A DNA stretch of 64,000 bases from Thelephora terrestris. Its lineage: Eukaryota; Basidiomycota; Agaricomycetes; Thelephorales; Thelephoraceae. The notes below the pieces were generated by a model that had not been told where the DNA came from, searched no databases, and was given only the letters and a program-made list of their open reading frames with translations. The stretch is from the NCBI GenBank assembly GCA_015956445.1, contig WIUZ02000019.1:434001-498000 (forward strand). The letters are read 5' to 3'. How positions within the stretch are numbered: the stretch's first letter is position 1; every line of letters begins with the position of its first letter. This document shows positions 1-39,234 of this stretch, in pieces. The translations under genes were made by a program, and so were the position numbers.

Positions 1-442
1 CGATGACGCCACCGGAGTCTCCCACGGCATACGCAACTCGGTGTCAAACGTGACCCCGCGCATAGACTCCTGTAGCTTGTGGTCAATCAAGTTGTGATAC
101 CACAACTCGTCATCTATGGTCAAATAGAGGGGAGGCCTGGCGATCGTTGCCTCCAGTTGTCGAGCATCCACCTTGTCGGCAACCGCGAAGATCTACGATA
201 CGATGTCAGTTGTTGCCAGTAAACAGCGACACGTGACGTCGCACCTCGCGATAACTAGGGTACGCCACGTTGGCGTTCGGGAGGAAGTAACTCTTGTTCT
301 GTACGGAGCGCGGATCCGCAGACTCGATGGTAGCGGTGCTGTTCTCAGCACGAAAGACACGATCGGAGATCATGGGCATAATGGATGAGTAGTGGGTTGG
401 TGGGATTGTTGATTTGGGAAGAAGGGAGTTTGATGGATCCAA
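1..442 (-). CDS. LTR-borne accessory coiled-coil protein (partial)
   Basis: On the minus strand, opposite to the LTR promoter, the sequence encodes the start of a protein related to the accessory gene in the LTR at 3590-6888. The related core holds a VDARQLEAT-like stretch and TIDDELWYHNLI, matching VDAERLRET and TWDDELWVRTII in the other copy; the basic N-terminal exon lies nearer position 442. The gene leaves the window at position 1. No known domain is recognised. The similarity of two antisense genes in two LTRs is seen directly; a function in the element is inference. Confidence 0.5.
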
Positions 443-1311
443 TGGTCGGTTCGCACTACGCTTTATTCGACCCTCGACAGCGCCCGCGCCCTATTCGCCA
501 TTGGCTCGGCCCATCGTTTCACCGGTCCAGACTCCTCATACATTCGCCTTCGACATTCGCGCTCCACTCGGTCCTTTGTTGTCCCGATCGGACGAGCTGA
601 CGCGTCGTCTTCTTATTGGTTCGTCTCCACATGTGATATTATCCTTTGTCATTCCTTTCCCACACGACGTCATGACCCCTTTCTTATTCTCTCACGAACC
701 CTGACCCATTAGTCATTCTTTTATTGTTTCTATCCTATAAACCCGGGCCGCTTACTGTTCTAGCTTACTCTCGGCCCTTCTTTGCTCCGAGTTATTATTA
801 AATAGGGTTATCTATGTCCCGGCCACTCTCCTATATAAGTACCAGTAGAGTAGCTGAGGACTCCCCATCTTTGATATCTCGGGAAGTCCTCTTCTCCTTG
901 CAGCATCGGTGTATTTGCTGTAGGCCACTGAAGAGCTTATCGAGTAACTCCTTGAACCGTTCGCTCACCTCTCTCACTCAGTCTTGATCCTTAACCGGTG
1001 TTTGAAGCGAGCTCGGACACGACATCGAGTTCCGCACTGCTCTTTGGATCAAGTCATCAGTTTGAGGCGCCATCCTCGGGCTCTTGTATCTGCCCTCAGA
1101 AGACGATAGGGATCTACCTGATAGAGGCTCGGCACTCCTGCTGTGAATTCGGACAACCTACCGGAGAACGCTCGTCCATCGCGTTTTGGACCACGAAGAC
1201 TTTGGGTGGATATAGGGAAGTCGTTCCCCCTTTGCCCCATTGTTTCTTGTTGGTTGGAGTTGCGACTCACCAACAGCACTGGTACCTGAAGGGCGAAGAG
1301 TGGCCCTGACA
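1..1311 (+). mobile_element. Long LTR, 3' part (left end outside window)
   Basis: This is the 3' portion of a long solo-type LTR. It ends with CCCTGACA immediately before Helitron coding sequence; AAAGT at 1312-1316 is the presumed target-site duplication, whose partner lies outside the window. A TATATAAG promoter box lies near 832-839 and reads rightward, followed by a pyrimidine-rich leader, as expected for R-U5. Its last 200 bases share blocks such as GGACAACCTACCGG and the end GAGTGGCCCTGACA with the inverted LTR at 3590-6888, so both belong to one family. No gag or pol is visible, so it looks like a solo LTR relic. The class (Ty3- or copia-like) cannot be told from an LTR alone. Confidence 0.72.
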
Positions 1312-3589
1312 AAAGTGTTTCAGGATCACCAGTTTACAGTTGGGGTAACGGGAATTGATGCGTTTCGTAGGGGGTTTATACAGCATTTATATTATGGACA
1401 TTGCGCCTCTGCTGGGGGTGTCGGGTGTACTGCGCTTGTCCGGGGTGAATCATCACCACATGCTGTGGCGATTGAACTTATAGACAGAACCATAGAGTGG
1501 ATGGATGTGGGTGCGTTGACCCTGAATCAATTTGTGGTTATATGTGACGCCCTCGCCATAACCGCAACGGCAAAAGCCAGAAGGGTATCGTTAATGACAA
1601 AACTTGTTCGGCGTCGCCGCGAGCTCTTGGACGACATGCAAGCTGCGGCTTTGTCCGTTTCTGAATTGTTCACGCAGTTAGGTTCCTCCTCTGCTCTGAA
1701 AACTGTTCGCTCGATAGCATCGGTGCACCACGTTGACGTACCGTCTAACGAAAGCAAAGTAAATGTCACGTCCGCGATCTTTCACCATATCGCCCACGGC
1801 AATTGCGCCGCGGACACAAATCAGGCTCCCGGGTGTAAAGAGCAGGTGAGCGCTGCCAGCGTGGACTCGGGTGATGTAGTTCCACTGCAAGTGTCTGTAC
1901 TATCGTCGGTTGTTGAGGTAGCTTCGAAGAATCAGCTGCGCAAAGTGTTGGATTTGCACGAGATTGCATACCACCCTGCTGAAAATCATAAAAAACTGAA
2001 ACGTCACATGCAGAAGTTCATTGACAACCTGGTGCAAGGCAAGCTGAAGGAATTTGACGCGCAGAAGAAGGGACTGGAACGTTTGCATACGCTCAATCAA
2101 ATTCGCGAACAGTGGCCGAAATTGTTACCGGCGTCTTTCAAGGAGAAAATCGTCAATGATTTTCGTTCTGCTACTTCTTCCACGACACTCGCCTCCTTCA
2201 CGTGTGCTTGTTGTGCACGGGAACTTTCGGTGCACGAACGTGTGTGTAAAAACGTAGACGATGTCGATCTCAAGCCATTGCAAAAACCGGCCTCGCATTG
2301 GATCGATTCGATGTATCCGCCGCCGCCTTCACCGTTCGAGGAGGGCCCGTTGAAGGATAAGCTCGTCTCGCCAAAGGGTGTGGTTATCGAAGCCAATACA
2401 TTGACTCTCGAGTTGTGTTTGTGTTGCTCACGGACTCTTCACAAACACGCTTTGCCAAAGCATGCGCTCGCAAATAAGATGGATGTGGGTCCTGTCCCCG
2501 ATGAACTTAGGGATCTTACGATGGTGGAAGAGAGCATGATAGCTCGCTCACGCGCCAAATCTTGCATTGTCAAATTACAAGAGCGAGACGTGGATTCCGC
2601 TTCACCAACTGCCCAGCGCGGACTGAAAGGGCACACCATTATATACCCTCAACGTCCCGACAAGCTCGCTACGCTTCTACCGCCTTCTATCCCCGAAACC
2701 CTGACCTACATTTGCGTAATATTTGTCGGCAGTTCAAAACCGACGAAGGATTGGCTGCAACAGAAAGCCAAACCATTAGTCGTCCGCCAGGAAAAGGTTC
2801 GAAATGCTTTGCTTTGGCTGAAACGCAACAATCCCCTTTACAAAGACGTTGAGATCTGTGAAGCGAACCTACAATCATTGCCAGACAACGATCTTCTCCC
2901 ATATCATATTGAAAGTGTTGCCAACAACGAAGCCCACGAGGAGTTGCTGTCGAGTTACGACAACCTGCGCCAGGACGTTGCCTCTACATCGTCTCCTACC
3001 CATTTTGAAAGTGTCGTCGTCACTGATGTTGACACACACACCCCTGTCAAAAATTTAAAGGCAGCTGCTATCCGTCATGCTAAGAGCGAAGGGAAGTCGT
3101 TTATTCAAGTGCCGCTTGGTCACACCCCCGTCAATGAATTCTTCAACGTTGACTTGTTCCCTACCTTGTACCCCACTCTCTATCCGTATGGATGTGGAGG
3201 TTTTGAAGATCGCACAAGAAAGAAAAAAATATCCATGAAAGAACACGTCAAGTACCTCTTCTCATTGAACGACCGACGCTTCCAGATGCACAACTCGTTT
3301 TTGTTTACAGTGTTCAACATATTGCAACGTCGCGAATTGTTGTTGGGTTGTAGCCTCAAGGTAAAAAGGGCCACCTTTGGCCAGTTCGCCCGGGATTTTG
3401 CATCTGTTTCTTCTGAAGCCGTCAGCTGTGTGTTGGAGAGGATCGAGAAAGGCGAGGGTGTGAAGGCGAGCACGGACGAAGAGCGCCGGGTGCTCAGGTT
3501 GATGAAAGAAGTCAACTTGGTTACCGCCAAGGTCCCGGGATCGTCTGCATCTCGTGTTGCCATGAGGAACGAGATAAGGGCGCTGACGT
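1312..3589 (+). CDS. Helitron replicase-helicase, N-terminal part (DUF6570 region)
   Basis: This is the leading part of a fungal Helitron Rep/helicase polyprotein. About 760 residues are open here. A Cys-rich module near 2205-2490 (CACCARELS, then LCLCCSRTLHKHALP) and a following LT-x-x-E region fit DUF6570, the domain that precedes Helitron_like_N in many basidiomycete Helitron proteins. The last residues before the break, RNEIRALTL, lead into the Rep domain. The open frame upstream of 1312 is LTR sequence, so the true start is lost to the left insertion. The right break is the LTR at 3590. The gene continues in frame at 6889 once one copy of the GACGT duplication is discounted. It is an interrupted, probably dead, autonomous Helitron gene. 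Confidence 0.85.
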
Positions 3590-6500
3590 TGTCAGGGCCA
3601 CTCTACCCCAACAACTACCAGTTCACTGAGCCGACTCCGCAGAGTACTCACTAGTCCGACTAGCTTGTGAGAGAACGATCACGTCTCTATTCTTCCGGTA
3701 GGTTGTCCGAGGTCACTGCAAGTCAGGTCGAAATCCTAAAGAGAAACCCAACCTAAACCGTACTTCGTTCGGTTTAACAAACAAGGGTTGATCCCTACAA
3801 CAGGATTGATGACTCCACCAATTGATCGACTGGACGCTCGAGGTGTTCTAATATGACTGCGGAGAGTCTATAGTTACGAGGCGCAGTTGACGCGCAGAGC
3901 GGGAGGGAGAGCAGATGGGGGATGTCTTGGATCAAACAAGAAACTCTGACTTGGCCTTAACTGCAACTGGGCTGAGAAGGGCAGAGGATTTCCTGAGGTA
4001 ACAAAACTAAGGTACTACGATACAGCCACAGTTGCTACTTATACTAAAGGAGTGGCCATGACGTCAATACCCTAATATACCCTAATCAAGTCCAGAACAA
4101 AGGGAGATAAGGAGTGTGAGAACGCTAAGTAAGGGAAGCGAACAAAGGTGATGCGTGGGAGAATAAAGACAAAGGGCCTTACTAGCGTGTGAAGGATTGC
4201 ATAAAAGATAAGGAATGTCCGCATGAAACATAGGGGTAAAGATAACACTAGTCCAAATGGAAATAGGAGCATGGGGTCGTGAAAGTTCGTACCTGGGGAT
4301 CTCACCCAAGGGCCAGGTGTCAATCTCCCTTTACATGGCCTCTGCCAGCTGGATTCGGGAGTAGAGACATTCAACATCCCTTGTTGTCTGTAGGCGGTAA
4401 CAGCATCACGGACAGGTGGCAACCTCAACGTACGTCCGAACATGAGGAGGTCGGGCCTAGACTCATGGGACATGAGGGATTACAGATTCACCGGCGTTTC
4501 ATGCTAACGGCTACTCCACATGCGCTGGGCTAGCCAGAAGGATCCTAAGGCGATGCTTCCGAATAGCGGCGAGTCCTTCCTCCGGTTAGGAGACTGTGAT
4601 GTGACTGTCCACGTGTGGGATCAGGGTCCAGGGTTGATCGTAATCGTAAAGTCATGAGGGGTCGTAAAAAGGGGTTCGTGATGTCATAACGGGGTCATCA
4701 GGGTCTTGAGACCTATTTTTAGTGCGCGCGTGTTCTAGGCGTTCCGGAACGAAGTTCTTCCAAGGCCGTCCCGCGGGCCGAGGTGTCAGCTTGATGTAGT
4801 AAGCCAACGATGATGGTACAGGGGCGGAAGTTGATGTGACCCGGACCAATGAGGTTCGTCGAGGTAGGTCACGTGAAGGATCACCGATCTAGGCTATAAG
4901 AAGGACGTCTTCTTGGAGCCATCCTTGATCAGCAACACCAGCAACTTCCCCATCATCTTACCAAAACATGTCCTTCCCCAACAACCATACCTACAAAGTT
5001 GCCAATGGTATCTCCACCATCTCTCGCATCAACCGTCGTGCCGCCGCTCGCAAGACCTACGCCTGTGCGGCTGGTACTCCCTATACCACGGATGACCAGG
5101 TATGGGGGAGACCTAGAGCTTCGTGTGTTCGCACTAACGCCTTCCTCTAGGTAGAGGAACGTTCTTTTGGCGTTTGATGTCAAACTAACGGCTTCTAGAT
5201 CTTGGAGGTCGTCACGGAAGTGGACGCCGAACGTCTCAGGGAGACAATGCCTCATTTGAAGGGGTTAACCTGGGATGATGAGCTTTGGGTCCGTACTATC
5301 ATTGCCGAGAAGGTGGCTTTCCAGATGAGGGGTAGGTTCAGAGAGTTGGAGCATCTGATCAAGAAGGAGCTCTGGTACACCCTGCAGAGGGGAATCTACG
5401 ATCAAGATCTGTTGGAGCACGGGGCAACCGTTCCTCGGGCCGTCCGCCATGCCACTGCCGCCACCTCGTTGTTGTGGTCGCTCGTTCGGGAGGGGGAGAG
5501 CAAGGTAGGTTCTCCGTTTGAATAGTCGAGTATGACTCTCGACTAATCAAACTGCCTAGGTTGAACGTTTGGAGCGCGAGGTGAAGGAGGCGAAGGCAGA
5601 CGTCCTTCGTTTGTCGGCGGAGAGTCTTCAGATGAAGGAGACCTTGGCTGCCTTCCAGCAAGGAACGAACGAGGCGTTGGAGGCAATGGTCGCCAACCAT
5701 CAAGAGTTGATCGCCGGGTTGAAGGTTAGGGATAACAACATCAAGGGGGTGTTGGCCAGGAGGGATGAAAAGGTAATGCCTCTTCCATCATTGCTTAGAA
5801 CGATGGAAGTTGACATTTCCTAGACCGAAGAACTCGAGAACGTGGTGGCTGTGTTGACAGCGCAGGTCGAGTCCTTGCAGGACAAAACCTGTAACTGCAA
5901 GGAGGGTCCCAAATTGGTTGGTCAGGGGACCGCCGATGTTCCGTTCGAGCTGGAGTACGCCGACGAGGTGGTACTCCCTTCTCCTAACCCGTCGTCCTAT
6001 GCGACGCCTCCAATTGAGAACGCGGTTCCCGTTCCGACTCCGGCTCCGGCTTCCACTCTGGCCGCTTCCGACAAGGAGAACTGTGGGCGCTGCGTCTTGC
6101 AGCCGATCCATCAGTTGGTGAAGATCGAAGATGAGGTCATGGAGGTTGACCGAGCCGAAGATGCTCCGAGGGTCGCCGAGGTACGTCTGGTGACTAAGGG
6201 GCAACGATGCAAACGCTCTCGACGCCGCCCTGCTTATCGCATGGCTCCATCAGCTAATCCCTATCCTCGTCCAGTCGAGTCGGATGGTGACCAGTCTGGT
6301 CGAGGTGGGGGACGAGAGTTCCGCTATCGGGTCAACCGTCCCTACCGACAGGTCGAGTCGGAGATCCAGCTTCGCCACCAGCTTCGACTCGCAAGACAGG
6401 ATTCCGCCCAGGGGTCCGACGAGGGAGACGGAGGGTCGCTTGCCGACTACGTCGATAGTGCTGTCGAGCAGTCACCCGGTGATGGAGATGTGGGACCAGG

Positions 6501-6888
6501 TGTTCCGCAGTTCGGTGACATCTGGGAGGCTGATCGGTCCGCTCGAAGGCATCTCTTCCTATCGGCTTGAACTGGTCGTTCAGCTGAGTGCCGAAGATGG
6601 TGACGCCATGTTTGGGGAGGTCCTTGCGAGGAGGGGCCAGCACTACGATCTCCGAGATGGACGTTTGGTGACCTTCAGGCCTGCCGTAGATAGAGTCGAC
6701 TTTTGATGAGATTAGGATAGCACTTGTATAGCTCGTTGTGGATTCGCTGGGAATAGTACGCGCGTGTGTGTTTCGAATGATTGGTGTGAAGGATAAGGAG
6801 TGTGAAGCATTCAAAACATAAGAAGTGATAAGAAGAGTTCGAAGAAAGAGCGTGTTATAAAAAGTTTAAAAATACCATGTTCCTGACA
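3590..6888 (-). mobile_element. Solo long LTR (3.3 kb) inserted in Helitron
   Basis: The element starts TGTCAGGG and ends CCTGACA and is flanked by the 5 bp duplication GACGT (3585-3589 and 6889-6893), the signature of LTR-element integration. Removing it restores the Helitron frame through RNEIRALTL into SHGMPSF. A TATAAGTAGC box on the minus strand near 4036-4046 indicates that the LTR's own transcription runs leftward. The unusual length is explained by a spliced gene on the plus strand (4968-6570). No gag or pol is present, so it is a solo LTR left by LTR-LTR recombination. The exact duplication and readable cargo suggest a fairly young insertion. It looks whole as an LTR. Confidence 0.85.
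4968..6570 (+). CDS. LTR-borne antisense accessory protein, coiled coil with acidic tail
   Basis: This four-exon gene lies inside the LTR but runs against the LTR promoter. Exons are about 4968-5099, 5199-5504, 5560-5772 and 5824-6570, with 50-100 bp GT-AG introns, and the phases agree, so it looks whole. The product has a short basic N-terminus (NRRAAARKTYA), a conserved helical segment containing TWDDELWVRTIIAEK, a heptad-rich coiled coil (the exon at 5560-5772 and the start of the next), and a low-complexity, charged C-terminus. It has its own TATA-like box CTATAAGAAGG at 4893-4903. No enzyme motif is seen. Paralogues sit in the same antisense arrangement in the other long LTRs. The role is unknown; an LTR-encoded regulator or particle-associated factor is possible. 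Confidence 0.65.
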
Positions 6889-9800
6889 GACGTTGTCCCA
6901 TGGAATGCCCAGTTTTTATGTTACTATCAATCCCGCAGACACTCACAACCCAATCGTTAAGTTCCTTGCAGGCGCAGACATAGATATCGACAAACTTCTG
7001 CCTGAGGATGCGCCCAACTATTGGGAGCAAGTGTTACTTGTCTCGTCCAATCCGGCGATCGCCGCGACCTTTTTTAACAGGTACTTAAAGGCGTTCATTA
7101 AGACAGTTCTTGGTTACGACCCTTTAGGTAAAAATGACGAAGGTGGTATCCTCGGTGTAGTGAAGGCTCATTACGGTTGTGTGGAAGCACAAGGCCGAGG
7201 CAGTTTGCACTGCCACATGCTTATCTGGATTGAAGGGGCGCTCAACCCCAATGAGATCCGTGAAAAAGTGCTGAGCGATCCTGCGTGGGGGAAGAGGCTA
7301 TTAGACTATCTGGACGACACCATCACCAACATAGTACCTGTAGATCCTTCTCCCGACCAAGCGACGCAATGGGATGACATAGACCCCTGTACATCAAGAG
7401 GCGTGAACCTGGATCTCGAAAATCTACAACAACGTTTGGCATTGAGAATGAAAGACATAAGTAGACTTGCCGAACGCGTTCAGAGACACCGCCACTCTCA
7501 CACGTGTTACAAACACTTTAAACCGGGGGAACAAAGAACGTGCCGGTTCGATCTCAAGGAGGAGAACTTTCGCGCTGAGAGCTGTATTAACCCCGAGACC
7601 GGAGAGATATGTCTGCGCTGTTTGGATGGGCTCGTCAACAATTTTAATATGACAATTCTTGAGGCCGTTAGGTGTAACATGGACATACAATTTATTGGTT
7701 CAGGCGGATCGGCGAAGGCGATGATATACTACATCACCGATTATATCACCAAATCCCAGCTTAAATCTCACGTTGCTTACGCTGCGCTGCAATTGGCTGT
7801 TAAGAAATGTGAGGACGTCGACGACGGGGAAGACGATTTCACCATAAAGTCTAAACGCCTCTTACAGAAGTGCGCCTATGCTCTGATATCGCATCAGGAG
7901 ATGTCGGCGCAACAAGTTGCTTCGTATTTGATGGCGTACGAGGACCACTTCACGTCGCACAATTTCAGCTCTCTTTACTGGGCGTCGTTTGAGCGATTTA
8001 TAGAGGGGGAAGATTCCGAGAAGTTGTGTGGGAAATGGGCCAACAAAAATAATGGACCGGACGACCCTTTGGAGGAAAAGACAGCGAATAACGACGACGT
8101 AGCGTCCGTCATCGATGACAACGAAGAGGATTTGGGCTCGAATGGACAAGGGGACAGTCCACAGGTAGATTTGCTGCCAGGAAATGACGAAGAGGTCTCC
8201 GTTCGTGTTGACAATTCTGAGACCGTTTCCGTGTTGACCGACCAGGTGACCGACTACACATTACGTCCAATGGAGGTCAGTGAGATGTGTCTGTGGGAAT
8301 TTGTGGCTAAAACGGAGAAAGCATACGGAGGAATGCCGAAAAGCAGTGCAGGGACCGAACACCACACATTGCTCGACGGGGTAACCGACCATCAAGCCCC
8401 GGTCGAGGCTGACGATGATGACGCTCAGAATGGATGGAATCTGCAGGATGATGAGTCAGAAATTGGGATGGCGGATGATCAAGATGGACGAGAGAGGCGT
8501 AACCGCCTTTCCAAACGACGCAAACAAGTGGTCCGTTACCAGTTTCTGCCCGAGCACAAGGAATGGGCAAATAAACACATCCGTTTACGGGCGCAAAGCT
8601 TTGTTCCTGTACCCATCGGACCAGCTCTACCGCGCGCTGACCAGGACGAAAACCGCGCACGATATTGTCGACTGATGTTGTTATTGTTTAAGCCATGGCG
8701 CACAGCCTCGGATTTGCGTGAACCTACACTTTCTTGGGAGAAAGCTTTTAATGACTTTGTGTGGTCCATCGATGCTGAATACCGACGTATCATCGCTAAC
8801 ATGCAAGTGCTGCATGAATGCCGTGATAGCCGCAATGATCACATGCAAACAAGGACGCGACTGCGCCATCGCGACTCTGCTGCAAACGAAGGCGAGGGTA
8901 ACAGCCATGGTAATGAGATTGAAGATGTCGACATGAGCGATTTGCTGGATCATCTGGAGAGCGACGACTCCATGTACTCCAGAAAGCGCGAAGATGGTAT
9001 GCGTGAGACGCAGCAGTGTATAGACGAACTGGACAACGCAGGGTTCTTCGATACCCGGGAATGTGTTTCTGCTATGCAACAAGACACAACAATGCACCAC
9101 CTGTTAGAAGAGAACGATGAGTTGTTAGAGGATGAATGGAAGGACACCTACGAGAAAAGGAAATTAACTTGGAAGCAGGAGGCTACTCGTTGTGAGGGTG
9201 TTGGGGAGCCAACAGCCGTCTCTGTGAATAGCTTGTGTGATTTGGCCACCGTCTCTGAAGAGACACCGGAGATAAACGGTGCGGAAACCGTTTCAGAGGG
9301 TTCAGCTTCCTCGTCGGATGCCCAAACAGAGATAGAGAGTACGGCCGACAAATGGACCCTCAACAGAGAGCAACGCCGAGCGTTCCGAATTGTTGCCCAA
9401 CATTGTTTGGAACCAAAAAACCCCCAACTTCTAATGTACCTTGGAGGTCCTGGCGGAACCGGGAAATCCAGGGTTGTAAATGCTCTCCGGGACCTCTTTG
9501 AGTTGCGGAAGCAGACACGTCGCTTTAGGCTGGCAGCGTACACAGGTGTTGCAGCTCGTAATATCGGAGGGGCAACCTTGCATTCACTGCTTCAGCTGGG
9601 TCAGTCGGAGACGAGAACGTCACAGAAAGTGAAACGCGACTTGTCTGCCATGTGGGATGGGGTGGACTATCTCTTCATCGACGAATTGTCTATGCTGGGG
9701 TGTGAAATGCTACACAACGTCAGCCGCGCCCTCACGGAAGCGAAGGGGGTTACCACGGCTTTCGGGGGCGTGAACATAATATTGTCAGGGGATTTTGCTC

Positions 9801-10969
9801 AGTTACCTCCCATAGGGGACACTAAGCTTTACAAAGACATTAACACTGCTTGCCTGTCTGCTGCATCCACAAACCGCGCACAACAAAAAATCCTGGGGAG
9901 GCTGCTGTGGCTGTCGTTTGACACCGTAGTCATGCTGCATGAAACCGTGCGCCAAGCGGGTCAGGACAATCTGCCATTCGTGGAGCTCCTCCGACGCTTG
10001 CGTGATGGTGTGTGCAACGAAGAGGATCACAACATGCTGGCGAACCGTTGTTTGCAGATGTGCTCCCTCCAAGGTGGAACGGGTCATTGGAAGTATGCCC
10101 CAATCATTGTCACGAACAACGCCACGAGGGATGAGATCAATCGCAGGGCGGCGCAAGCTTTCGCAGAAGAAAGGGGAGTTCAGCTTGACTGGTACCACGC
10201 CGTCGATACGCACCGGAAAACGATTATTACCGACGCCGCATTGGTTAAGAAGTTGGAAGAACAACACACCGGTCAAACCAAACACAGGCTCCGGCGTATA
10301 CCCCTGGTGATCGGTATGCCCGTTTCGATCAACCAGAACTTCGACGTGAACGCAGGGGTCGTCAACGGTTCACAGGGAATTGTGAAACATATCAGATATG
10401 TCACTGACAGTGAAAACCGTCGCTACCTGAAGTCGGTTGTGGTAGAGATCCCCAACTCGGACGCAGTGGAGATGCCGCATTTGCCACAACACCACTTCCC
10501 CATCTTACCGGACGTTGTAGACCTGAAATTCGAGCACGACAAGTCACATAAACGTTGCGTCATAAAAAGGAAACAAGTGCCAATAGAACCTGGTTTCGCA
10601 ATAACGGTACACAAAGCTCAAGGAAAAACCTTGCAAAGGGCAGTTGTTGATCTCGCAGGTTGTACGGGTACCGAACCACCGTATGTGATGGTTTCCAGGG
10701 TGACGTCATTGGAAGGTTTGTTGGTATTGCGCAACTTCGAAAAGAACCAGATTACAAAACGTCGTTCTGAGGATTTGAGAAAGGAATTTTCACGGTTGGA
10801 GGGCTTGAAATGGCTCACCGTCATCAACTACGGGGACGATGCTGAGGCCGTTGAGGCAAAACGGAGGTTACGAGCCCTGGTTGACAGGCGGGTGGTGACC
10901 CCCATGAAACGCAAAAGGGCTGAACCGTCCGCCGCTGGGCGGGAGCCAAAAAGGAAACAGGTTGTGTGA
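6889..10969 (+). CDS. Helitron Rep-PIF1 helicase, C-terminal part
   Basis: The longer piece of the Helitron protein, about 1,358 residues open from 6893. It begins with Helitron_like_N (PSFYVTINPAD). The HUH endonuclease motif is GSLHCHMLIW near 7200-7230, and the paired tyrosines are in YYITDYITKSQ near 7728-7760, so the Y2 rolling-circle nuclease is present. A long acidic linker (about 8040-9300) follows. The PIF1 helicase starts near 9357: Walker A GGPGGTGKSR, Walker B FIDELSML, GDFAQLPPI, and late motifs FAITVHKAQGKTL and VMVSRVTSLEGL. The basic C-terminus ends KRKQVV. The nuclease would nick and ligate the element ends and the helicase would unwind the donor strand. The domain is intact; only the upstream part is separated by the LTR. 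Confidence 0.92.
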
Positions 10970-13951: not shown

Positions 13952-16900
13952 CTAACCAAAGTTTTGTGATTGTGTTAATGCCTTAGACCAGCTGCGTCCC
14001 ACCTTGATTTCACTCCCAGGGCCATTTCCCACTGGCAACAGCCAGGAATCCGTGAGCTGCTGCAGGGCAATCCTTGCTCTGAACAGTGAGTCTGATTGGC
14101 GGAGATTATACTCTTCTGCGGTTATGTGATCTGGCGTTGTTCCCAACACGTGCCCAACGCCATTGAGATAGACAAAGAAAACCTGCTTGAACGCGGATAC
14201 AATGGCATCAGCCTGCCCCCGTCGGAGTTGGCCATTGCCACCGTTGGTCTTGAAGGTAAAAAGCTGTTCTACATCGGAAACAGCATTCACCTTTCGGTTG
14301 TAGGCAGAAAGGGTGAGTGCCAATGGAGATAGATTTGTCAGGCGCAAGAGCTAGTTTTGCACCTGTTAGTTCGCACTAGAGGCATGCAAAAAAAAACTAC
14401 CTGAGTGATTGTCAAGTCGCCAAAGCCTCCCAATGGCACCATGAAACCCTCCAGCAGGCATTTAAACTGCGGCTTCTCCCACGGCTCTTGACATCCGAGG
14501 AAGGCAGTGGCCACAAGGGCCGAAGTCCAACACTCGTGGTCACCCTTGCACCGATGTGGGTTCACAGCATTCAACTTCGTTCTCATTGATCAGGCCGCCT
14601 GATCAAAGAAAATGCAGAACAGAGCATACCTGGAACTCGCACAGACTCAGAACGCTCTGAACCAACAGCACTGGCTGAGGGACAGGTCCATCATCGAACC
14701 CCGTTAGCTTATCTGTCTCCTTCAGCACCATCCATGGCTGTAATATTCCAGCTGTCCCAGGGTCAAGCTGGTAGAGGGATCCTAGGTCGATCAAGACATC
14801 TTGAGCTTGAAGCGATCGCTCTCCTGCAAGTGAAGCAGCGGTAAGGAGGAGATAGAGCAGGAAAGGCGAGATGGGCTCTGGCCCATTTCCTAATGTGAGC
14901 AGATGCAACAGGGCGAGCGTTCCAATTGTCTTCCAACGAGTTTGATGTTCGACTGAGAGAGCTGGAGTGAATGCTGGCCTGACCCAACCGCACCCATCTA
15001 CAGAGGCAACCCATAATGTTTGGTCCCCCACTATGGTTTGGATAGCTTGCTGGAGGGTCGCTCGTTCTGGTCCCTCGCCGGTGCTGACTTCTGGTATAAG
15101 TCCACCCCGAAATTCACTTCGGTGTGTCAGATAGGGGACAGAGGCAAAATGCAGTGGACTCACACAACATAGCAGCGCAGGGGCTGAAAGAATGCACCGA
15201 GAGAGGCTACTGCTTTCCAGTCCACTCCGTTGGGTACCTCAAGTTCAGAATCAAGAAGTTCAGAAGCCAGCACTGTCCCTTCATTACGATGGAATATATC
15301 CATCATCAAGACCAACGCCTCTGAAAGACTTTTGATCGACCTAGCCCGAATCTGGAGGTCGGAAACTTGAACTGGTGTGCCCAAGTGGTGTGCACTTCCG
15401 CCAGGACGGACTTTCTCATGCCATTGGAGATAGCCTGGGATATTGGGGGATGCCTTGATGCGCATGGGCCACAGCTCTGCAGAGGTCTCAATGGCCATAG
15501 GTCTTGTCAGCTCTATACGACGGAATGTCTCAGCAAGTGGACCGTCGTATATAGCCCGCAGTTCCGTCGATTGGAGTCGAGAAGGCTCTCCTATGGACTC
15601 GGGAACAGCAGCCTTGACAAGCAACACGAAATTGGTTTCATTCACATCATCAGCAACTTCTAAAAAACAAACAGACATTGGGTTACCTCCGCTGTTTCCA
15701 TCCTTTCAGCACGGGGCCTATTTACAGCTGGGAGGATTGACCTCTCCTGGTGATAAATCTCAGCAAAAGAACATTAGCCAATGAATGTACCACTCACAGC
15801 CTGTAACAAAGGTGCTCTTGGGCCCAGTGGTTGGAGGGGATGATAGGAAGGGACCTAGTGGAGAGGACTACGTCAGGTTGTGGGAGAAATAGAGTACATC
15901 TTATTCCACAAACTTCCTCTGACTCGGAAGAGTCAACAATGATGACTGAGTCCCCTGCCCTAAGAGAGGCTCGGCGACTGACTCGCTCGGCTGGGTCTTC
16001 ATCCATGCTCTACTCCAGGTGCCTGAGTTGACCTGGTACAAGCTACCCACTGAAACGTACTTACCTCATCGTCATCGATGTCCGGCAGCACAGGGCAGAT
16101 TGGAGTATTTTTGCCATTGTGGCAGCGCTTGAGAAGTTTAGCAAACGTTGTCTGGGTGTCCTCTCCACATATTTTCAGGCCATGAAGAAGGCGATAGACG
16201 TAACACCCGTGAGGGTAGAACAGGTCACCGTTACCCTCGTCAAAATCATCATGGTAGACACCTTTTATTGCAGCAGAACAGTTGCCCGGAAACCTTGGAC
16301 CTGTTGCACAGAGGTGTGATGATTTCGCCGTTTACCCCCTTTCATTTCCTTTATTTAACGCCTCATCACCACTAAGTCAGTTGGTGCCTTGCCCTAAACA
16401 CGGCGGTAAACTGTTTATTATGCAGTATGCCCTATGCTTAACGACTCAAAGTCCAATACGTGGAACGTGCTACTAGTCAAGATACCCCAGAAGACCCGAG
16501 GTATAATACGTGAACATGTACCGGCGGACCTTCATACGAAGATCCCCCCTACCTGGCCCTCCGTTGCCCCTGGACGACTAGTAGATATTCAGGCTACCGA
16601 CAACAAGGGATGTATTAATAAGCGACGCGCGCTGACCTCTCGCAGAAGTCAACCGGCTTATTAATCTGACCCTTGGATTGGACTTATGAAAACCATTATG
16701 CTTTACGACTCATGGATCACGCGCAATAGACAAAATAGAAAGAAGATTAAATTGGAAGCCTACAGTACAAAAGAGTTATTTAATCAATATCTCTTCGGAT
16801 CCTTTGTACTACTTCCAACGCCGATCTCACCAACTCCTCATTCAGCCAGTTCTGCTCCCGTATCTCGTTCGGGTCTACGTCCGACAGGTCGTCGTAATCT

Positions 16901-19659
16901 GGAAGCTCTGTGTCAGAGTTCGGTTCGCTGTTAGGAACGAACTCGGCATACGGATCATACTCCAGAGCAGGCCATTGACGGCGACTACCCCAAGGAGTAG
17001 AAACGAACTCAGGACGAGGAGTGTCCCGACGGACGACTCCTACGTTCTGGTAGAATTCGTCGCTTCCAATCTCGATGACCTCATCATCAACAGGAACCAA
17101 CCTGTTCTCGTGACGAACCAACAGACGAGCGGGCGGCGACTCAGCCCGATTGGGAATTATCGGCGACCCGGCCCGATGCAGAACTTCCTCTCCCTCCTCT
17201 TCTTCGACTTGGACCTCCGGCTCGTTACACCTTCTCTGGAGATCCCGGACTTCTCCGGTCAACTCAGAGACACGACGAGTAAGGCGAACCTAAAGGAATA
17301 GGGTTAGAAGATATCAAAAACCTTCAACCCCTACCCCTTACCTTATCGTCCTCCAACTCTCCGGTTTTAGTAACCAGAGCCCGGACCAAGTCCTTCAAAG
17401 TAATCACCTCTCCCTAAAAGAAAGTTTGAGTTAGAAAGGTCAATTACTCCTGACCCAAACTTTCTTACCTTCAACAAATCGATATCGGCCCCCTGCCGAA
17501 CAACGGTATCTTCCTGTCCGTGGATGACCCCCTGCATATCCTCCTTCCAACTCTCCAACGCTTCTATCTCCTCGCGACGACCATCAACTCGCTCATTAAC
17601 ATGAGCTATCTCGTCCATCAACATAGACCCAACGTTACCCGTATGGATAACGCTGGCTTCCAACACAGAGTTGAAAGTCTCGTTGGTCTCAGTAACGAAC
17701 TCGACACCCCTATTAAGGAGTTCGGTCGCATAAGGGTTCGTCTCGATACGCGCCAACTTGCGCCGAGACACCCTACGAGAAGCTTGGATGAAATCCCGAA
17801 AACCTAAAAGGAGTTAGCTTGGTTTCCTAAATCGGAATGCGCAAGCAGGGCCCCCACCTAAATCGGTAAAACCCTCATTAGGGTCGGCGGTGGCGGTCCT
17901 ATCCATGACAGCTCCCAAGGTAGGATAAGGGTGGGATGGATCACGGCGGGCATGGGAGAAACGGTCGATGTTGTAATTGTTCTCCTGAACAGGAGAGTAG
18001 GAGGAAGAGCGACGAGTGGGATTGCGAGTAGAAGCACGAGGCATGTTGTGTGTGTAACAAAGGTGGGTTTGTTGGAAGACCAGTCATCCAACCCCCTTTG
18101 GTTATATACCAAATGCCACGCCCCTTCCACGACTCAGGAGTTGAGTCATCATTTCTATTGTTTACTGCGCATGACCCACATGACATCATATGCCCCTATC
18201 TTTAGTCATATGCTCCCCTTTTGCTATTGGCTGTTAGTCAACCATACCCACATTCTTTCCGAACATTCTCAGACTACTTCATGCTTTGTAACTGCTTTGT
18301 AATGCTCTCAAATTGCTATTGGCCGCCACACTTTCGTTTATCAGCTGATAATTTGTAGCATTAGTCACCACGTAACGCACAGACCATGCAGTGCTGCGCA
18401 CGGACCATGTTTGTCTGTGTTTGTATCTTTAGGGTAGTTACATGTCACTGTCACGTCACAAATCTAAGTAGTATATATACTCAGAGTAGTTTAGCCTGTA
18501 CTCCTTAGATTTGTTATCATCAGACTCTCCGTGACCTCTACTGCTGTGTGCTTAGAGCAAGAGTGCCTGAAGACCCTTGTCTCCTTCTTTCTCCTCTTCT
18601 CCAATCTAGTCTGTGAAGAGACTTCCGATATCCCTGGGTTTGCAACAGGGTTATAACTGTGTGTTTGCCCCCTGCGTGTGAAAGGTTTGGATAGCAAGAG
18701 TGTTATCGAACTGTAGAGGTCGCGTCGGCCTGACAAGAGGTGACTGAACGAACAGATATGCAGGAGTTTGGTTCACGTACAAATTACGGCAATCTTCTCT
18801 GGCTCTGTTGCCACCTCTCGAAGTGTGTCCTTGAATCCAAACCCTTTGGCAATCTGGCTCATAGTGTACTCCACCGGTGCCAACCTCACCGAAGATCTCT
18901 TGATCTCAACGACCTCAACTTTTCGATGCTGCGCTCCTGCCCGTCTCGGTTGACCTCGGAGATCACTTTCCTTTACTTTTGTCCTTTTGCACATCAGCAA
19001 CTCCCAGCGTGGTTGCCCGTTGTTGTCCCCATTTGTCTGTAACTCTGGCAGCTTCGGCCCGCCTCTTGAAGTCAGGTCCGTCAGCCCTTGATCAATCAAG
19101 CCAGACACGATGCGGCTATCGTTGTCTTCGTGAGATACCTCCACAGTAAATATCAGGTTGTTTGACTTGCAACGTGACAGGAACCTGTCAAATGAATCCT
19201 CCGGGTCCAGCCAGAACTTCTGCAAGAAGTCTCTGGGTACGCCAGATTCCGGTGGCATCTGCAACTCCTTCATCTGGAGAACCCATGAGTCGTTGGGCCA
19301 GTGGCAGCAGCATCACATACGTAGAGAGGGAGAAACAGGATGCTCAGCCGCAAGGGAGCCTTTGCTCGTGGACGTGCCAGAACAGGGGGGCGTCCTAACA
19401 TGTGACGGGTTGGGGTGGATGCCGGAGATGGTATTCCACCCCGGTTACGAGTTGCAGCCCTGTTGGCACTGATCATCCGCTGTTCGTTTGCAGCAACACC
19501 TGGCTGTTGTGGTAACGAAAATACGTGAGTAATCGGGCTTGCACTGACAGCTGGCCGACTGGGTCCTGGAATGGGTGCAAGTGAGGTGATCATGGATGGG
19601 ATTGACGACATGTGCGGAGGACCATCAGGTCTGTGGGCATCTTGAAGACCGCCACACAC
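13952..19659 (-). CDS. Large unknown multi-exon gene, partner of the DDE integrase
   Basis: The gene reads leftward. The first visible exon (19659-19321) is proline-rich and precedes an exon starting at 19273 (MKELQMPPES). A donor at about 18780 leads into the intron that contains the LTR 16315-18735, and the next exon starts near 16301 with FPGNCSAAIKGVYHDDFDEG. Further exons are visible at about 16014-15800, 15670-15160, 15120-14640, 14586-14400 and 14340-14000, the last containing FTFKTNGGNGQLRRGQ. I do not recognise the family; a distant resemblance of the C-terminal half to HECT-like regions was considered but no catalytic cysteine motif supports it. Some exon joins in the 15.6-15.8 kb region do not keep phase, so decay is likely. 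Confidence 0.4.
16315..18735 (+). mobile_element. Solo long LTR copy A (2.42 kb)
   Basis: The element runs from TGTGATGATTTCG to GGCCTGACA with the 5 bp duplication AGAGG on both sides (16310-16314 and 18736-18740). A TATATATACT box near 18473-18482 reads rightward, followed by a leader rich in CT, so the LTR is oriented plus. It lies inside a short intron of the surrounding minus-strand gene. It is nearly identical in length and content to copy B at 30779-33198, which is inverted and has its own duplication. No internal retroelement genes accompany it. It looks whole as an LTR and young, judging from the few differences between the copies. Confidence 0.88.
16780..18044 (-). CDS. Antisense accessory coiled-coil gene in LTR copy A
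   Basis: This multi-exon gene on the minus strand of the LTR starts MPRASTRNPTRRSSS at 18044. The product has a basic N-terminus, a helical core (RIETNPYATELLNRGVEFV), a coiled coil split over two short exons, and an acidic, proline-rich tail ending EVVQRIRRDID. Introns are about 50-60 bp. The layout (basic head, coiled coil in short exons, acidic tail, antisense to the LTR promoter) equals that of the gene at 4968-6570 although sequence similarity is low. No enzyme motif is seen and its function is unknown. Confidence 0.6.
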
Positions 19660-24840: not shown

Positions 24841-25456
24841 ACACGAACAGAATTTCTCATTGAGAAGTAAATTCATTAGCCTAGTGACATAGATCAGTGA
24901 AAGACAACGGTGCGTCGGTAGGGTTCCAGCAGCTATATGTCACTTACCGGCATGTGGAGGCCCATAAAACTGTGCCGTACTAACAGCGGCATGCCGTCAA
25001 CGGGAATCAATGTGGGCATGACAAGGCGAGAGATTTAGCAAAGACGACGACGCCCTTGAAGTATGTTGGCCGCCAGCGGTGTCGACTCGGTGGTAGATGC
25101 GTTTTGGGGCGCGGTCAATGGAGAGGTGTCCACAGTTGTTATGACTCCCCCAGATCTATGAAATGGGGACCTGGCGAGCCAAACATTTGAACGCGGCTGG
25201 CAGGAAGAGCAGTTGGCGGGTGGAACCGTTGTAGACCTTGGGGTGAGCTGAGACTCCAAGTGAGCTGAGGAGCGCGACGTCGCAGACGACGGCAACAATG
25301 GTGGAGGAATGGCAGGCAGGGAGCATCGAAAGAGTGGAGGCCTTCAGTCTCACATCTGCGAGGTTCTAGGCATCCCGCAATTGGTGTTTCTCCTCTGTGG
25401 CATCGACCTTCCTGCGTCGCACGACCAAGGGCCGCCACGCAGACGAGAGTCGCCCT
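24841..25456. other. No recognised gene
   Basis: Short open stretches exist on both strands but none shows a known domain or consistent splicing. The segment may contain eroded upstream exons of the Pcf11 copy; I cannot show it. Confidence 0.3.
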
Positions 25457-26291
25457 CACTGGGGGCAAGGGGTCACTTACCCAGAGATTACATTGTGATT
25501 ACATTGTGATTTTTTAGACAATGTGTTCAGCCTGTGGCCTAGAGGTACATGTTGAGTTCTTTTACAAAGTACCCATCAATGTGACCACAATGTGGCCAGT
25601 GGGTCCATCTTGATCACTTTTACAAAGTACCCATCAATTCGATCACAATGTGCCCTGTGGGTCCATGCAGGATACATTGTAAAAGTATCCATCAAAGTGC
25701 CACTGGGCACTTTGTGAAAGAAACCAGGGGTTTCTTTCACAATGTTGTTTAAAATTTATCCTACTGGGTGCCTGAGCCACTCATTGAGAGTTCTTTCAAA
25801 AAGTAACCAGCAATGTGACCACAATGTCCCCAGGAGGTTCTTCTCAATGTTTTCACAAAGAACTCTCAATGTGGTTGGATTTCATAACAAACTCTCAAAG
25901 AAATCATTGAGTATCTGGTTGAATACTTTGTGGACACATTACTGGATACTTTATGAAAGAACTCTCAATGAGTGGCTCAGATGCTGTACACTTTGTAAGC
26001 AAAATTGCGAAAGAACCCAGGGGTTTCTTTCACAAAGTGCCCAGTGGCCACTTTGATGGATATTTTTACAATGTATCCTGCATGGACCCACAGGGCACAT
26101 TGTGATCGAATTGATGGGTACTTTGTAAAAGTGATCAAGATGGACCTACTGGCCACATTGTGGTCACATTGATGGGTACTTTGTAAAAGAACTCAACATG
26201 TACCTCTAGGCCACAGGCTGAACACATTGTCTAAAAAATCACAATGTAATCACAATGTAATCTCTGGGTAAGTGACCCCTCGCCCCCAGTG
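25457..26291. mobile_element. 835 bp near-full palindromic CACTG-ended element
   Basis: The element begins CACTGGGGGCAAGGGG and ends with the complement (GCCCCCAGTG), flanked by the 3 bp duplication CCT (25454-25456 and 26292-26294). The two halves are inverted copies for roughly 300 bases each with few mismatches, followed by a less symmetric centre. The CACTG end and 3 bp duplication place it with CACTA-type non-autonomous elements. It shares only its termini with the 501 bp elements at 38045, 39235 and 47806. It has no coding capacity. Confidence 0.85.
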
Positions 26292-30768: not shown

Positions 30769-30778
30769 GCAGGCCTTC

Positions 30779-33198
30779 TGTCAGGCCGACGCGACCTCTA
30801 CAGTTCAATAGCACTCTTGCTATCCAAACCTATCACACGCAGGGGTCAAACACACAGTTATAACCCTGTTGCAAACCCAGGGATATCGGAAGTCTCTTCA
30901 CAGACTAGATTGGAGAAGAGGAGAAAGAAGGAGACAAGGGTCTTCAGGCACTCTTGCTCTAAGCACACAGCAGTAGAGGTCACGGAGAGTCTGATGATAA
31001 CAAATCTAAGGAGTACAGGCTAAACTACTCGGAGTATATATACTACTTAGATTTGTGATGTGACCGTTACATGTAACTACCCTAAAGATACAAACACAGA
31101 CAAACATGGTCCGTGCGCAGCACTGCATGGTCTGTGCGTTACGTGGTGACTAATGCTACAAATTATCAGCTGATAAACGAAAGTGTGGCGGCCAATAGCA
31201 ATTTGAGAGCATTACAGAGCAATTACAAAGCATGACGTATCCTGAGAATGTTCGGAAGGAATGTGGGTATGGCTGACTAACAGCCAATAGCAAAAGGGGA
31301 GCATATGACTAAAGATAGGGGCATATGATGTCATGTGGGTCATGCGCAGTAAACAATAGAAATGATGACTCAACTCCTGAGTCGTGGAAGGGGCGTGGCA
31401 TTTGGTATATAACCAAAGGGGGTTGGATGACTGGTCTTCCAACAAACCCACCTTTGTTACACACTCATAACATGCCTCGTGCTTCTACTCGCAATCCCAC
31501 TCGTCGCTCTTCCTCTTACTCTCCTGTTCAGGAGAACAATTACAACATCGACCGTTTCTCCCATGCCCGTCGTGACCCGTCCCGCCCTTATCCTACTTTG
31601 GGAGCGATTATGGACCGGACCGCCACCGCCGACCCTAATGAGGGGTTCTCTGATTTAGGTGGGGGCCCTGCTTGCGAATTCCGATCTAGGAAACCAAGCT
31701 AACTCCTTTTAGGTTTCAGGGACTTTCTCCAAGCTGCTCGAAGGGTGTCTCGGCGCAAGTTGGCGCGCATCGAGACCAACCCTTATGCGACTGAACTCCT
31801 CAATAGGGGTGTTGAGTTCGTGACTGAGACCAACGAGACCTTCAACTCCGTGTTGGAGGCCAGCGTTCTCCATACGGGGAACGTTGGGTCCATGTTAATG
31901 GACGAAGTGGCTCATGTTAATGAGCGTATTGATGGTCGTCGTGAGGAGATAGAGGCGTTGGAGAATTGGAAAGAGGATATGCAGGGAGTCATTCATGGAC
32001 AGGAAGATAGCGTTGTTCGGCAGGGGGCCGACATTGATTTGCTTAAGGTAAATGTGGGGTCGGGAGATAATTGATTTCTCTAACCCAACATTTCCTTTAG
32101 GGAGAGGTGACTACTTTGAAGGACTTGGTTCGGGCTCTGGTTACCAAAACCGGAGAATTGGAGGACGATAAGGTAAGGGGTAGGGGTTGAAGATAATTGA
32201 TCTCTTCTAACCCTATTCCTTTAGGTTCGCCTTACTCGTCGTGTCTCCGAGTTAACCGGAGAAGTCCGGGATCTCCAGAGGAGATGTAACGAGCCGGAGG
32301 TCCGAGTCGAAGAAGAGGAGGGAGAGGAAGTTCTGTATCGGGCCGGGTCGCCGATAATTCCCAATCGGGCTGAGTCGCCGCCCGCTCGTCTGTTGGTCCG
32401 TCACGAGAACAGGTTGGTTCCTGTTGATGATGAGGTCATTGAAATCGGGAGCGACGAATTTTATCAGAACGTAGGAGTTGTCCGTCGGGACACTCCTCGT
32501 CCTGAGTTCGTTTCTACTCCTTGGGGTAGTCGCCGTCAATGGCCTGCTCTGGAGTACGATCCGTACGCTGAGTTCGTTCCCGATAGTGAACCAAACTCTG
32601 ATACGGAGCTTCCAGATTACGATGACTTGTCGGACGTAGATCCAAACGAGATCCGGGAGCAGAACTGGTTGAACGAGGAGTTGGTGAGATCGGCATTGGA
32701 AGTAGTACAAAGGATCCGAAGAGATATTGATTAGATAACTCTTTTGTACTGTTGGCTTCCAATGAATCTTCTTTCTATTTTATCTATTGCGCGTGATCCA
32801 TGAGTCGTAAAGCATATTGGTTTTCATAAGTCCAATCCAAGGGTCAGATTAATAAGCCGGTTGACTTCTGCGAGAGGTCAGCGTGCGACGCTTATTAATA
32901 CATCCCTTGTTGTCGGTAGCCTGAATATCTACTAGTCGTCCAGGGGCAACGGAGGGCCAGGTAGGGGGGATCTTCGTATGAAGGTCCGCCGGTACATGTT
33001 CACGTATTATACCTCGGGTCTTCTGGGGTATCTTGACTAGTAGCACGTTCCACGTATTGGACTTTGAGTCGTTAAGCATAGGGCATACTGCATAATAAAC
33101 AGTTTACCGCCGTGTTTAGGGCAGGGCACCAACTGACTTAGTGGTGATGAGGCGTTAAATAAAGGAAATGAAAGGGGGTAAACGGCGAAATCATCACA
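30779..33198 (-). mobile_element. Solo long LTR copy B (2.42 kb), inverted relative to copy A
   Basis: The plus strand reads TGTCAGGCCGACG to AAATCATCACA with the 5 bp duplication CCTTC on both sides (30774-30778 and 33199-33203). It matches copy A (16315-18735) end to end in reverse orientation, differing by scattered substitutions. The LTR promoter box is on the minus strand near 31040. Separate duplications prove two independent insertions, so the pair is not the two ends of one element. It looks whole as an LTR, and no internal genes are present. Confidence 0.88.
31472..32734 (+). CDS. Antisense accessory coiled-coil gene in LTR copy B
   Basis: This counterpart of the gene at 16780-18044 starts MPRASTRNPTRRSSS and has short GT-AG introns (for example about 32048-32100 and 32173-32224). 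The core contains RIETNPYATELLNRGVEFV and the acidic tail ends EVVQRIRRDID. It reads on the strand opposite to the LTR promoter. The two copies differ at a scatter of residues while both frames stay open, which hints at protein-level constraint or recent origin. The function is unknown. Confidence 0.62.
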
Positions 33199-38545: not shown

Positions 38546-38734
38546 ACAAACGTTCCCCCTCCTTAGGTTTTCGGGGACACCAGTAGACCGGAAAGACCCG
38601 TTACCGGCCGACGGATGAAGGCCAGATGTGCCGATCGGCATATCATGAGCCCACGCGGCTAAATATATACAAATAACGTGTCTCAGACACGACGCGTGAC
38701 CGCGATCGGCGTTCAAACACGACCTCCGTACCAA

Positions 38735-39180: not shown

Positions 39181-39234
39181 TTTGTTTGCTGAGTGGGGAA
39201 TGTTTAATGCCCTTCGGCGATCCCATATAGAAGA

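What the first reader, a model, noticed from the sequence alone, without database searches (positions are those of the whole stretch)
3590..6888. Long LTRs carry a spliced coiled-coil gene antisense to the LTR promoter
Four LTRs or LTR parts (1-1311, 3590-6888, 16315-18735, 30779-33198) contain a multi-exon gene on the strand opposite to their own TATA/leader. The products share an architecture: basic head, helical core, coiled coil in short exons, acidic tail. Two of them share VDAxxL and DDELW motifs. Most LTRs have no gene in U3; the sag gene of MMTV is a known exception but is sense-oriented. The genes remain open after the rest of the element is gone, which suggests selection or youth. 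This may be an undescribed class of LTR-encoded accessory protein.
Basis: partly seen in the sequence, partly recalled or inferred. Interest (0 to 1): 0.85.

Follow-up and report, generated by a model that had tools for sequence, protein, structure and literature searches.

The report
Antisense spliced gene inside retrotransposon LTRs
In this fungus-like genome, some retrotransposons carry a complete intron-containing gene inside their long terminal repeats, on the strand opposite to their own replication genes; its protein sequence is kept by natural selection, and the gene stays behind in solo repeats after the rest of the element is lost.

Summary
Window 3590-6888 is a 3,299-bp solo LTR (TGTCAG...CTGACA, 5-bp target duplication) inside a Helitron gene. 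Full-length elements with these LTRs exist: Ty3/gypsy chromoviruses with intact gag and pol and the gene antisense to them, wholly in U3, diverging from the element promoter. The LTR ending at 1311 is a second family (C) with a homologous gene; the three C elements found carry it at both ends, antisense. The units at 16315-18735 and 30779-33198 are a third family (B) with an unrelated gene of similar layout, seen only as solo units (24 of 24 checked); its parent element and direction are unproven. Selection is clear: dN/dS 0.10 (A) and 0.04 (B); 26-27 of 27 A and 22 of 22 B copies are intact with all splice sites. Between three full-length elements the gene diverges at synonymous sites like pol and gag and is constrained like gag. 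Insertions look young, so selection probably acted in active lineages. Antisense accessory genes between pol and the 3' LTR (Grande, Retand, Boty) and HTLV-1 HBZ are known; nine library searches showed no spliced antisense gene inside U3. Function is inferred: most likely a trans-acting nuclear regulator.

The parts
3590..6888 (+). family A solo LTR, given in the orientation of its gene (the element itself reads on the minus strand)
   Evidence: TG..CA ends, TSD GACGT; 27 full-length copies
3590..4012 (-). R-U5 part of LTR A (inferred, border approximate): the stretch 3998-4009 equals, and its element strand is complementary to, 12 nt of the sequence next to the LTR in the full-length element, as in Tf1-type self-priming
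   Evidence: 12-nt match; 2 of 300 shuffled PBS reach it
4030..4050 (-). TATA-like site AGTATAAGTAG of the element promoter (approximate place)
   Evidence: sequence; not tested functionally
4893..4967 (+). TATA (tataag at 4895) and 5' leader of the antisense gene; the least diverged of the LTR regions compared
   Evidence: (pairwise divergence 0.0044 against 0.0756 in introns)
4968..5099 (+). gene A exon 1
5199..5504 (+). gene A exon 2 (VDAERL, DDELW)
5560..5772 (+). gene A exon 3 (coiled coil; dN/dS 0.016)
5824..6499 (+). gene A exon 4 (first part continues the coiled coil; then acidic, then a basic stretch with KRSRRR). In the alternative splice form it ends at 6180
6549..6706 (+). gene A exon 5, C-terminus (alternative form 6275-6706); boundary less certain than the others
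1..1311 (-). family C solo LTR, gene-strand 5' end; the rest lies upstream of the window (from C11:432380); TSD ACTTT
245..379 (-). gene C exon 1
1..192 (-). gene C exon 2, cut by the window edge
30779..33198 (+). family B solo LTR-like unit, TSD CCTTC
31472..32734 (+). gene B: exons 31472-31658, 31713-32047, 32101-32172, 32225-32734 (367 aa)
16315..18735 (-). second family B solo unit, TSD CCTCT
16780..18044 (-). gene B in that copy, intact (367 aa, 4 exons; start worked out from exon and intron lengths)

Best explanation
A and C are two related families of Ty3/gypsy chromoviruses whose U3 holds two diverging transcription units: the normal promoter that drives gag-pol, and about 0.85 kb away (A) a second promoter that drives a spliced gene on the other strand. 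The gene is element-owned: it evolved with gag-pol in active lineages under purifying selection about as strong as that on gag. Being antisense lets it keep introns, because the genomic RNA that is reverse-transcribed is the sense strand; lying in the LTR means that it is copied to both ends and survives LTR-LTR recombination in each complete solo LTR. How it works (inferred): a nuclear, coiled-coil, trans-acting regulator of its own LTR promoter or chromatin, made by the few full-length elements and by the many solo LTRs, in the manner of HTLV-1 HBZ or Grande gene23. Shown: structure, orientation, homology of A and C, coding, selection; youth of insertions follows from low noncoding divergence. 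Inferred: expression, splicing, nuclear site, regulatory role. B has a similar layout and stronger selection, but its parent element was not found.
For: Structure. Coding and selection: 27 of 27 A copies (alternative C-terminus) or 26 of 27 (favoured model), 7 of 7 complete A' copies, 22 of 22 B copies and 3 of 3 more diverged B copies intact; dN/dS A 0.098 (24 copies), exon 3 0.016, B 0.037; third codon positions hold 273 of 418 variable CDS sites in A, 84% of differences in B and 45 of 55 differences between two C genes, exons 1-4. No indel in A exons (27 copies) and one codon in B exons (22 copies), while introns and flanks vary in length. A and C share three intron positions in the protein alignment. 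Co-evolution: between three full-length elements synonymous divergence is 0.119-0.175 in pol, 0.093-0.131 in gag, 0.123-0.183 in the gene, with dN/dS 0.030-0.048, 0.078-0.150 and 0.048-0.138 (gene on the alternative CDS). Promoter: TATA-leader divergence 0.0044 against 0.0756 in introns (A). Youth: the LTRs within one element differ at 0-2 of about 3,300. Regulator reading: heptad pattern, a basic stretch and acidic segments; faster change than pol (36% protein identity A to C, against 76% in RT).
Against: No transcript, splice or protein data. No DNA-binding family in Pfam for A (first 336 aa) or B (C not scanned); weak hits are mostly generic coiled coils. The structure model of A exon 2 was poor (pLDDT 48.5) and that of B exon 2 middling (69.2, single sequence), so neither was searched. 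In B the TATA-leader is not specially conserved (0.0514 against 0.026-0.032 in other noncoding parts). B has no full-length element: 24 of 24 solo. A structural role or anti-silencing fits the same data.
Confidence: 0.6

Rival explanations
1. The protein is a structural or particle helper (an assembly, RNA-packaging or import cofactor working with gag) rather than a regulator.
For: Constraint like that on gag; long coiled coil with extreme conservation of exon 3.
Against: Own promoter, antisense placement and retention in solo LTRs are not needed for a particle part; no gag-like or zinc-knuckle match for A (first 336 aa) or B.
Confidence: 0.2
2. Each LTR unit is itself the unit of selection or of movement: the solo copies are not only remnants, they spread (integrated in trans by the chromovirus machinery) or are kept for a benefit of the gene.
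For: Few full-length elements against many gene loci: 8 A-type and 3 C-type RT loci against about 150 exon 2 loci listed for each of A and C (capped lists); B 24 of 24 solo, no full-length found, yet the strongest constraint.
Against: I know of no mechanism for copying a solo LTR; little-diverged noncoding parts and near-identical LTR pairs say that insertions are young, so selection in full-length lineages suffices; LTR-LTR recombination giving many solo LTRs is ordinary (crapaud, PMC10787394, passages read).
Confidence: 0.15
3. A host gene captured by chance and carried as neutral cargo.
For: It has introns and its own promoter like a host gene.
Against: dN/dS 0.04-0.10 among copies; homologous genes in two element families with the same three intron positions.
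Confidence: 0.03
4. The antisense RNA, not the protein, is the functional product (double-stranded RNA or promoter interference).
For: Antisense transcripts are proposed to regulate some retroelements (PMC7264820, parts 1 and 2 of 3 read).
Against: Codon-position pattern, frame controls and splice-site conservation point to a protein product; a second RNA role is not excluded.
Confidence: 0.05

Closest known systems
Antisense additional ORFs of LTR retrotransposons (aORF-3R: Grande gene23, RIRE2, Retand TRP28 ORFs, PvRetro13, Botrytis Boty)
   Same: Element-owned gene antisense to gag-pol, own promoter (Grande), nuclear product (Grande), conserved like other retrotransposon proteins (PMC7264820, parts 1 and 2 of 3 read; PMC11963269, 12 of 15 passages seen).
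   Different: Those lie between pol and the 3' LTR, once per element, and would be lost in solo LTRs; here the whole spliced gene is in U3, in both LTRs and in complete solo LTRs.
HTLV-1 HBZ (and APH-2/3/4)
   Same: Antisense, spliced, driven from the 3' LTR; HBZ is a bZIP nuclear protein that lowers provirus expression (PMC10186651, abstract and passages seen).
   Different: HBZ coding sequence runs into the internal region (recalled) and it has a bZIP; here the entire gene is in U3 and no bZIP family is hit.
MMTV sag
   Same: Protein-coding gene in U3 of the LTR, copied to both ends (recalled).
   Different: Sense orientation, superantigen, mammalian retrovirus (recalled; papers on the MMTV LTR ORF seen in a search listing only).
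crapaud of Podospora (fungal chromodomain LTR element with variable U3 and many solo LTRs)
   Same: Chromodomain element, diverged U3, many solo LTRs (PMC10787394, 12 of 21 passages seen).
   Different: Its divergent U3 part is under 200 bp and no LTR gene is mentioned in the passages seen.

Membership tests
Ty3/gypsy chromovirus (families A and C) | RT, RNase H, integrase and C-terminal chromodomain in pol | tested here: met
   on the A element of C1; C only by RT identity of 76% to A
Ty3/gypsy chromovirus (families A and C) | Two LTRs with TG..CA ends and 5-bp target duplication | tested here: met
   A: C1 GATTA, C12 GATGG and C23 CATCA; C: C5 AACTG
Ty3/gypsy chromovirus (families A and C) | PPT before the 3' LTR and primer site after the 5' LTR | tested here: inconclusive
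   purine-rich tract present by eye; primer site of self-priming type suggested by 12-nt (A) and 11-nt (C) complement
Ty3/gypsy LTR (family B) | B unit found as LTR pair around gag-pol | tested here: not met
   24 of 24 solo with duplications; no RT flanked by two antisense B genes among the 87 gypsy and 73 copia RT hits entered, one same-strand case at C4:1124039 not followed up (150 of 333 B matches used)
Antisense additional ORF (aORF-3R) | antisense to gag-pol, in most copies, conserved | tested here: met
   (A and C)
[quoted passage not shown]
   located in the LTR
HBZ-type antisense regulator | spliced antisense gene with promoter in the LTR | tested here: inconclusive
   conserved splice sites and TATA-leader in A; no RNA data
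HBZ-type antisense regulator | bZIP domain | tested here: not met
   no bZIP family among Pfam hits for A (first 336 aa) or B
HBZ-type antisense regulator | nuclear, regulates provirus transcription | not testable with these tools
   needs experiment
MMTV sag-like LTR gene | gene in U3 in sense orientation | tested here: not met
   gene is antisense

The most novel reading that the evidence does not exclude
The solo LTRs are not dead remnants but a dispersed, working gene reservoir: because the regulator lies in U3, each LTR-LTR recombination event that removes gag-pol leaves one more source of the regulator, so that the many solo LTRs control (support or restrain) the few full-length elements in trans, a copy-number sensor built into the LTR; and unrelated families (A/C and B) arrived at the same layout independently.
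Probability: 0.3. Interest if true: 0.88.

Novelty: new variant of a known kind. Interest (0 to 1): 0.75.

Why it matters
Solo LTRs are usually counted as inert remnants. Here they carry complete genes with their own predicted promoter, intact in nearly all complete copies examined, so losing gag-pol does not remove the family's gene. The antisense placement explains how a retroelement can own an intron-containing gene (introns survive reverse transcription). The gene occurs at well over a hundred loci per family in one genome, and the layout makes a testable model of control of full-length elements by their own solo LTRs. It also warns annotators: such genes could be called as a large host family or masked as repeats.

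Tried and rejected
Rejected: (a) Stand-alone transposon rather than LTR: excluded for A and C by LTR pairs with shared target duplications. (b) Last intron of A only at 6181-6274: open in 27 of 27, but codon periodicity in 6184-6303 and the C gene, whose changes follow the matching frame, favour the exon 4 frame reading on to about 6499; both forms kept. (c) C23:838500-842500 as a B internal region: no gag-pol-like ORF by eye. (d) C56:1773103/1781427 as a B pair: both are solo with their own duplications CCTTC and GGCGC. (e) A guessed pattern for a B primer site next to the B unit: no match. (f) A-B and C-B homology: none by profile comparison. (g) Structure models: too weak to search. (h), a flank check from typed hit lists, used 149 of 324 A matches, 150 of 333 B matches, 87 of 97 gypsy and 73 of 99 copia RT matches. 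Of the A elements it recovered only the C23 tandem, because the other LTR genes were not in the printed list; it also gave one copia RT with A-type genes on both sides antisense (C23:2535060) and two same-strand cases (C56:1430945 with A, C4:1124039 with B), none followed up. (i) Papers PMC12037069 and PMC4016481 ('LTR ORF'; passages seen): they mean pol ORFs or non-LTR ORFs.

Dropped before counts: three near-duplicate A copies (L011, L020, L024) (periodicity); L054; B pairs of unequal CDS length. Three incomplete A copies are broken: L045 truncated and frame-shifted, L041b with an insert, L028 cut short (a B unit follows). The three more diverged B copies have in-frame length changes in exon 4 (501, 486 and 486 against 510 nt). 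Of six A' copies tested for flanks, five have a duplication and L043 has not. In one search one opposite-strand frame gave 0.183 (its third positions coincide with the gene's, my reading); the other four wrong frames gave 1.2-3.9. The null counts stops only, and was run on the alternative (479 aa) A model and on the 20 B copies of full CDS length. My first reading of the second C gene used a wrong offset and was redone.
Full report
What was checked. The window lies in G000:C11:434001-498000, an unnamed 40.6-Mb genome. Short introns and a Helitron with DUF6570 look fungal, probably basidiomycete; that is my inference.

The LTR. 3590-6888 begins TGTCAG, ends CTGACA and has GACGT on both sides. 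It sits inside a Helitron Rep-helicase gene whose two halves are the ORFs 1216-3654 and 6887-10969. Of 27 full-length copies listed (40 of 638 first-look candidates scored), 24 are solo with identical 5-nt flanks, two are the LTRs of one element, one (L014) has no matching flanks.

Full-length elements exist. C1:546891-559509 has two 3,301-bp LTRs that differ at 2 positions, flanked by GATTA. Between them are gag (681 aa, zinc knuckle) and pol (1,322 aa with protease, RT, RNase H, integrase, chromodomain) on the minus strand; the LTR gene is on the plus strand. A tandem of three LTRs and two internal regions at C23:1029462-1051374 and an element at C12:3167893-3180557 have the same build, with LTRs differing at 0-2 positions within each and open gag and pol. 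RT search gave 8 loci at 99-100% identity and 3 at 76%. At the four A-type loci not otherwise read, a 1-kb sample at the expected place in one LTR matched LTR positions 1080-2082, which hold the start of the gene, in the antisense direction, 4 of 4. The three 76% loci are family C: gene matches lie on both sides, same strand, antisense to RT, at C5, C12 and C23; C5 has the duplication AACTG.

Where in the LTR. The sequence next to the LTR in the full-length A element contains GTAACAAAACTA, complementary to the element strand at 3998-4009, about 30 nt after a TATA-like site; the C element has an 11-nt equivalent (2 and 3 of 300 shuffles reach these lengths). This fits Tf1-type self-priming (recalled) and sets the start of R near 4012. 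U3 is then about 4013-6888 and the gene (4968-6706) lies wholly in it, with its own TATA at 4895, diverging from the element promoter.

The gene. Five exons; the first three introns have GT-AG in all 27 copies. The last intron is ambiguous: codon periodicity stays in the exon 4 frame to about 6480 and has switched by 6544, giving 494 aa, intact in 26 of 27 copies (L014 has a stop). The alternative intron 6181-6274 gives 479 aa, open in 27 of 27. Seven of seven complete A' copies are intact in both forms; three incomplete copies are broken. Family B: 4 exons, 367 aa (366 in two copies), 22 of 22 intact, and 3 of 3 more diverged copies too, with in-frame length changes in exon 4. Family C: two copies compared, exons 1-4; 4 of 294 residues differ, 45 of 55 changes at third positions.

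Selection. dN/dS is 0.098 in A (24 copies after dropping three near-duplicates; exons 0.048, 0.074, 0.016, 0.149, 0.241) and 0.037 in B. Shifted frames give 1.9 and 2.7, opposite-strand frames 1.2, 0.18 and 3.9. No exon of the 27 A copies has an indel, and one codon in the 22 B copies, while introns and flanks vary in length. Placing half the nearest-neighbour differences at random gives stops in 12.1 of 27 A and 10.0 of 20 B copies on average, with minima of 5 and 3 in 500 runs (alternative A model).

Whose selection. Between three full-length elements, synonymous divergence is 0.119-0.175 in pol, 0.093-0.131 in gag and 0.123-0.183 in the gene, with dN/dS 0.030-0.048, 0.078-0.150 and 0.048-0.138. 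The gene therefore evolves with the element and is constrained about like gag. Pairwise divergence among A copies is 0.0044 in the TATA-leader and 0.0114 in the 300 bp before it, against 0.0756 in introns and 0.1285 at third positions of the alternative CDS; other noncoding parts range from 0.019 to 0.068. If the solo copies were old, unconstrained noncoding parts would have diverged throughout; so the insertions are young and most divergence arose in active lineages. In B the leader is not specially conserved (0.0514), although other noncoding parts are little diverged (0.026-0.032 against introns 0.111).

Numbers of copies. Protein searches with A, B and C returned 324, 333 and 150 matches (several exons can match per locus; 150 candidates scored of 1442, 577 and 568 first looks). 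Solo status was checked for 27 A, 6 A', 24 B and, of C, for the window copy and the C5 pair only. In the C search 139 of 150 exon 2 matches have no stop, and none of the first 60 rows has one. In A nearly all rows show a TAG, the intron end before exon 2; in B some stops are intronic, for example C59:933847, which reads intact when spliced.

Relations. A and C proteins align at 36% identity with three intron positions in register, hhalign E 2.5e-15; B matches neither. No Pfam family reaches its cut-off for A (first 336 aa) or B, and no NCBIfam family for A; weak hits are mostly coiled coils (C not scanned). A PDB search with B gave three weak hits, two of them GCN4 constructs (E 0.18 and 0.55).

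Literature. Antisense additional ORFs between pol and the 3' LTR are known in plants and in Botrytis Boty (PMC7264820, parts 1 and 2 of 3 read; PMC11963269, passages). HBZ is a spliced antisense bZIP protein driven from the 3' LTR (PMC10186651, abstract and passages). crapaud has a variable U3 and many solo LTRs (PMC10787394, passages). Nine searches of the held library answered; in their listings and in what I read I saw no spliced antisense gene inside U3. The library lacks most subscription papers, so this is not proof of novelty.

Verdict. A real, selected, element-owned gene inside U3, antisense and spliced (by sequence), in two related chromovirus families, and a look-alike in a third family seen only as solo units. 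The role as a trans-acting nuclear regulator is inference (about 0.5 on its own); the structural facts are about 0.95 for A and C.

Noticed in passing
window 1-10969: A Helitron Rep-helicase gene (two halves 1216-3654 and 6887-10969) is split by the A solo LTR, and a C solo LTR ends at 1311 at its upstream side.
   Followed up: partly
L005, L006, L019, L059, L061, L065: LTR units nest in each other: 3 of 27 A copies and 3 of 20 fetched B copies have both flanks in another A, B or C unit, for example a B unit in the gene of an A unit.
   Followed up: partly
L010 and L015 flanks; window 30741-30778: Two A copies and one B copy are inserted within about 40 bp of each other in the same repeated sequence (TAATCCTCTAGCGCCCCACAAACAG...), perhaps a preferred target.
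   Followed up: no
window 27737-59174: Nine scattered copies of a 70-nt unit (CCCAACCAGGAATTCCTGGAAGG...) with an internal palindrome, five of them clustered at 38730-39190.
   Followed up: no
window 38037-39739 and 47802-48314: Three roughly 500-nt units with internal inverted arms of about 133 nt, perhaps a foldback element.
   Followed up: no
window 25449-26299: 251-nt inverted repeat, 98% complementary, 349 nt apart.
   Followed up: no
L068 (C56:1775800-1779300): ORF open over the whole 3.5 kb with a retropepsin-like motif (by eye) and long acidic stretches, between two B solo units.
   Followed up: no
C23:1029462-1051374: Tandem of three A' LTRs and two identical internal regions sharing the middle LTR, flanked by one target duplication.
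   Followed up: partly
window 6275-6570: Two overlapping frames stay open in nearly all A copies (25 of 27 and 27 of 27 over this part); possible alternative splicing with dual coding at the C-terminus.
   Followed up: partly
C23:2535060: A copia RT match has A-type gene matches on both sides, antisense; chance neighbours or another carrier.
   Followed up: no
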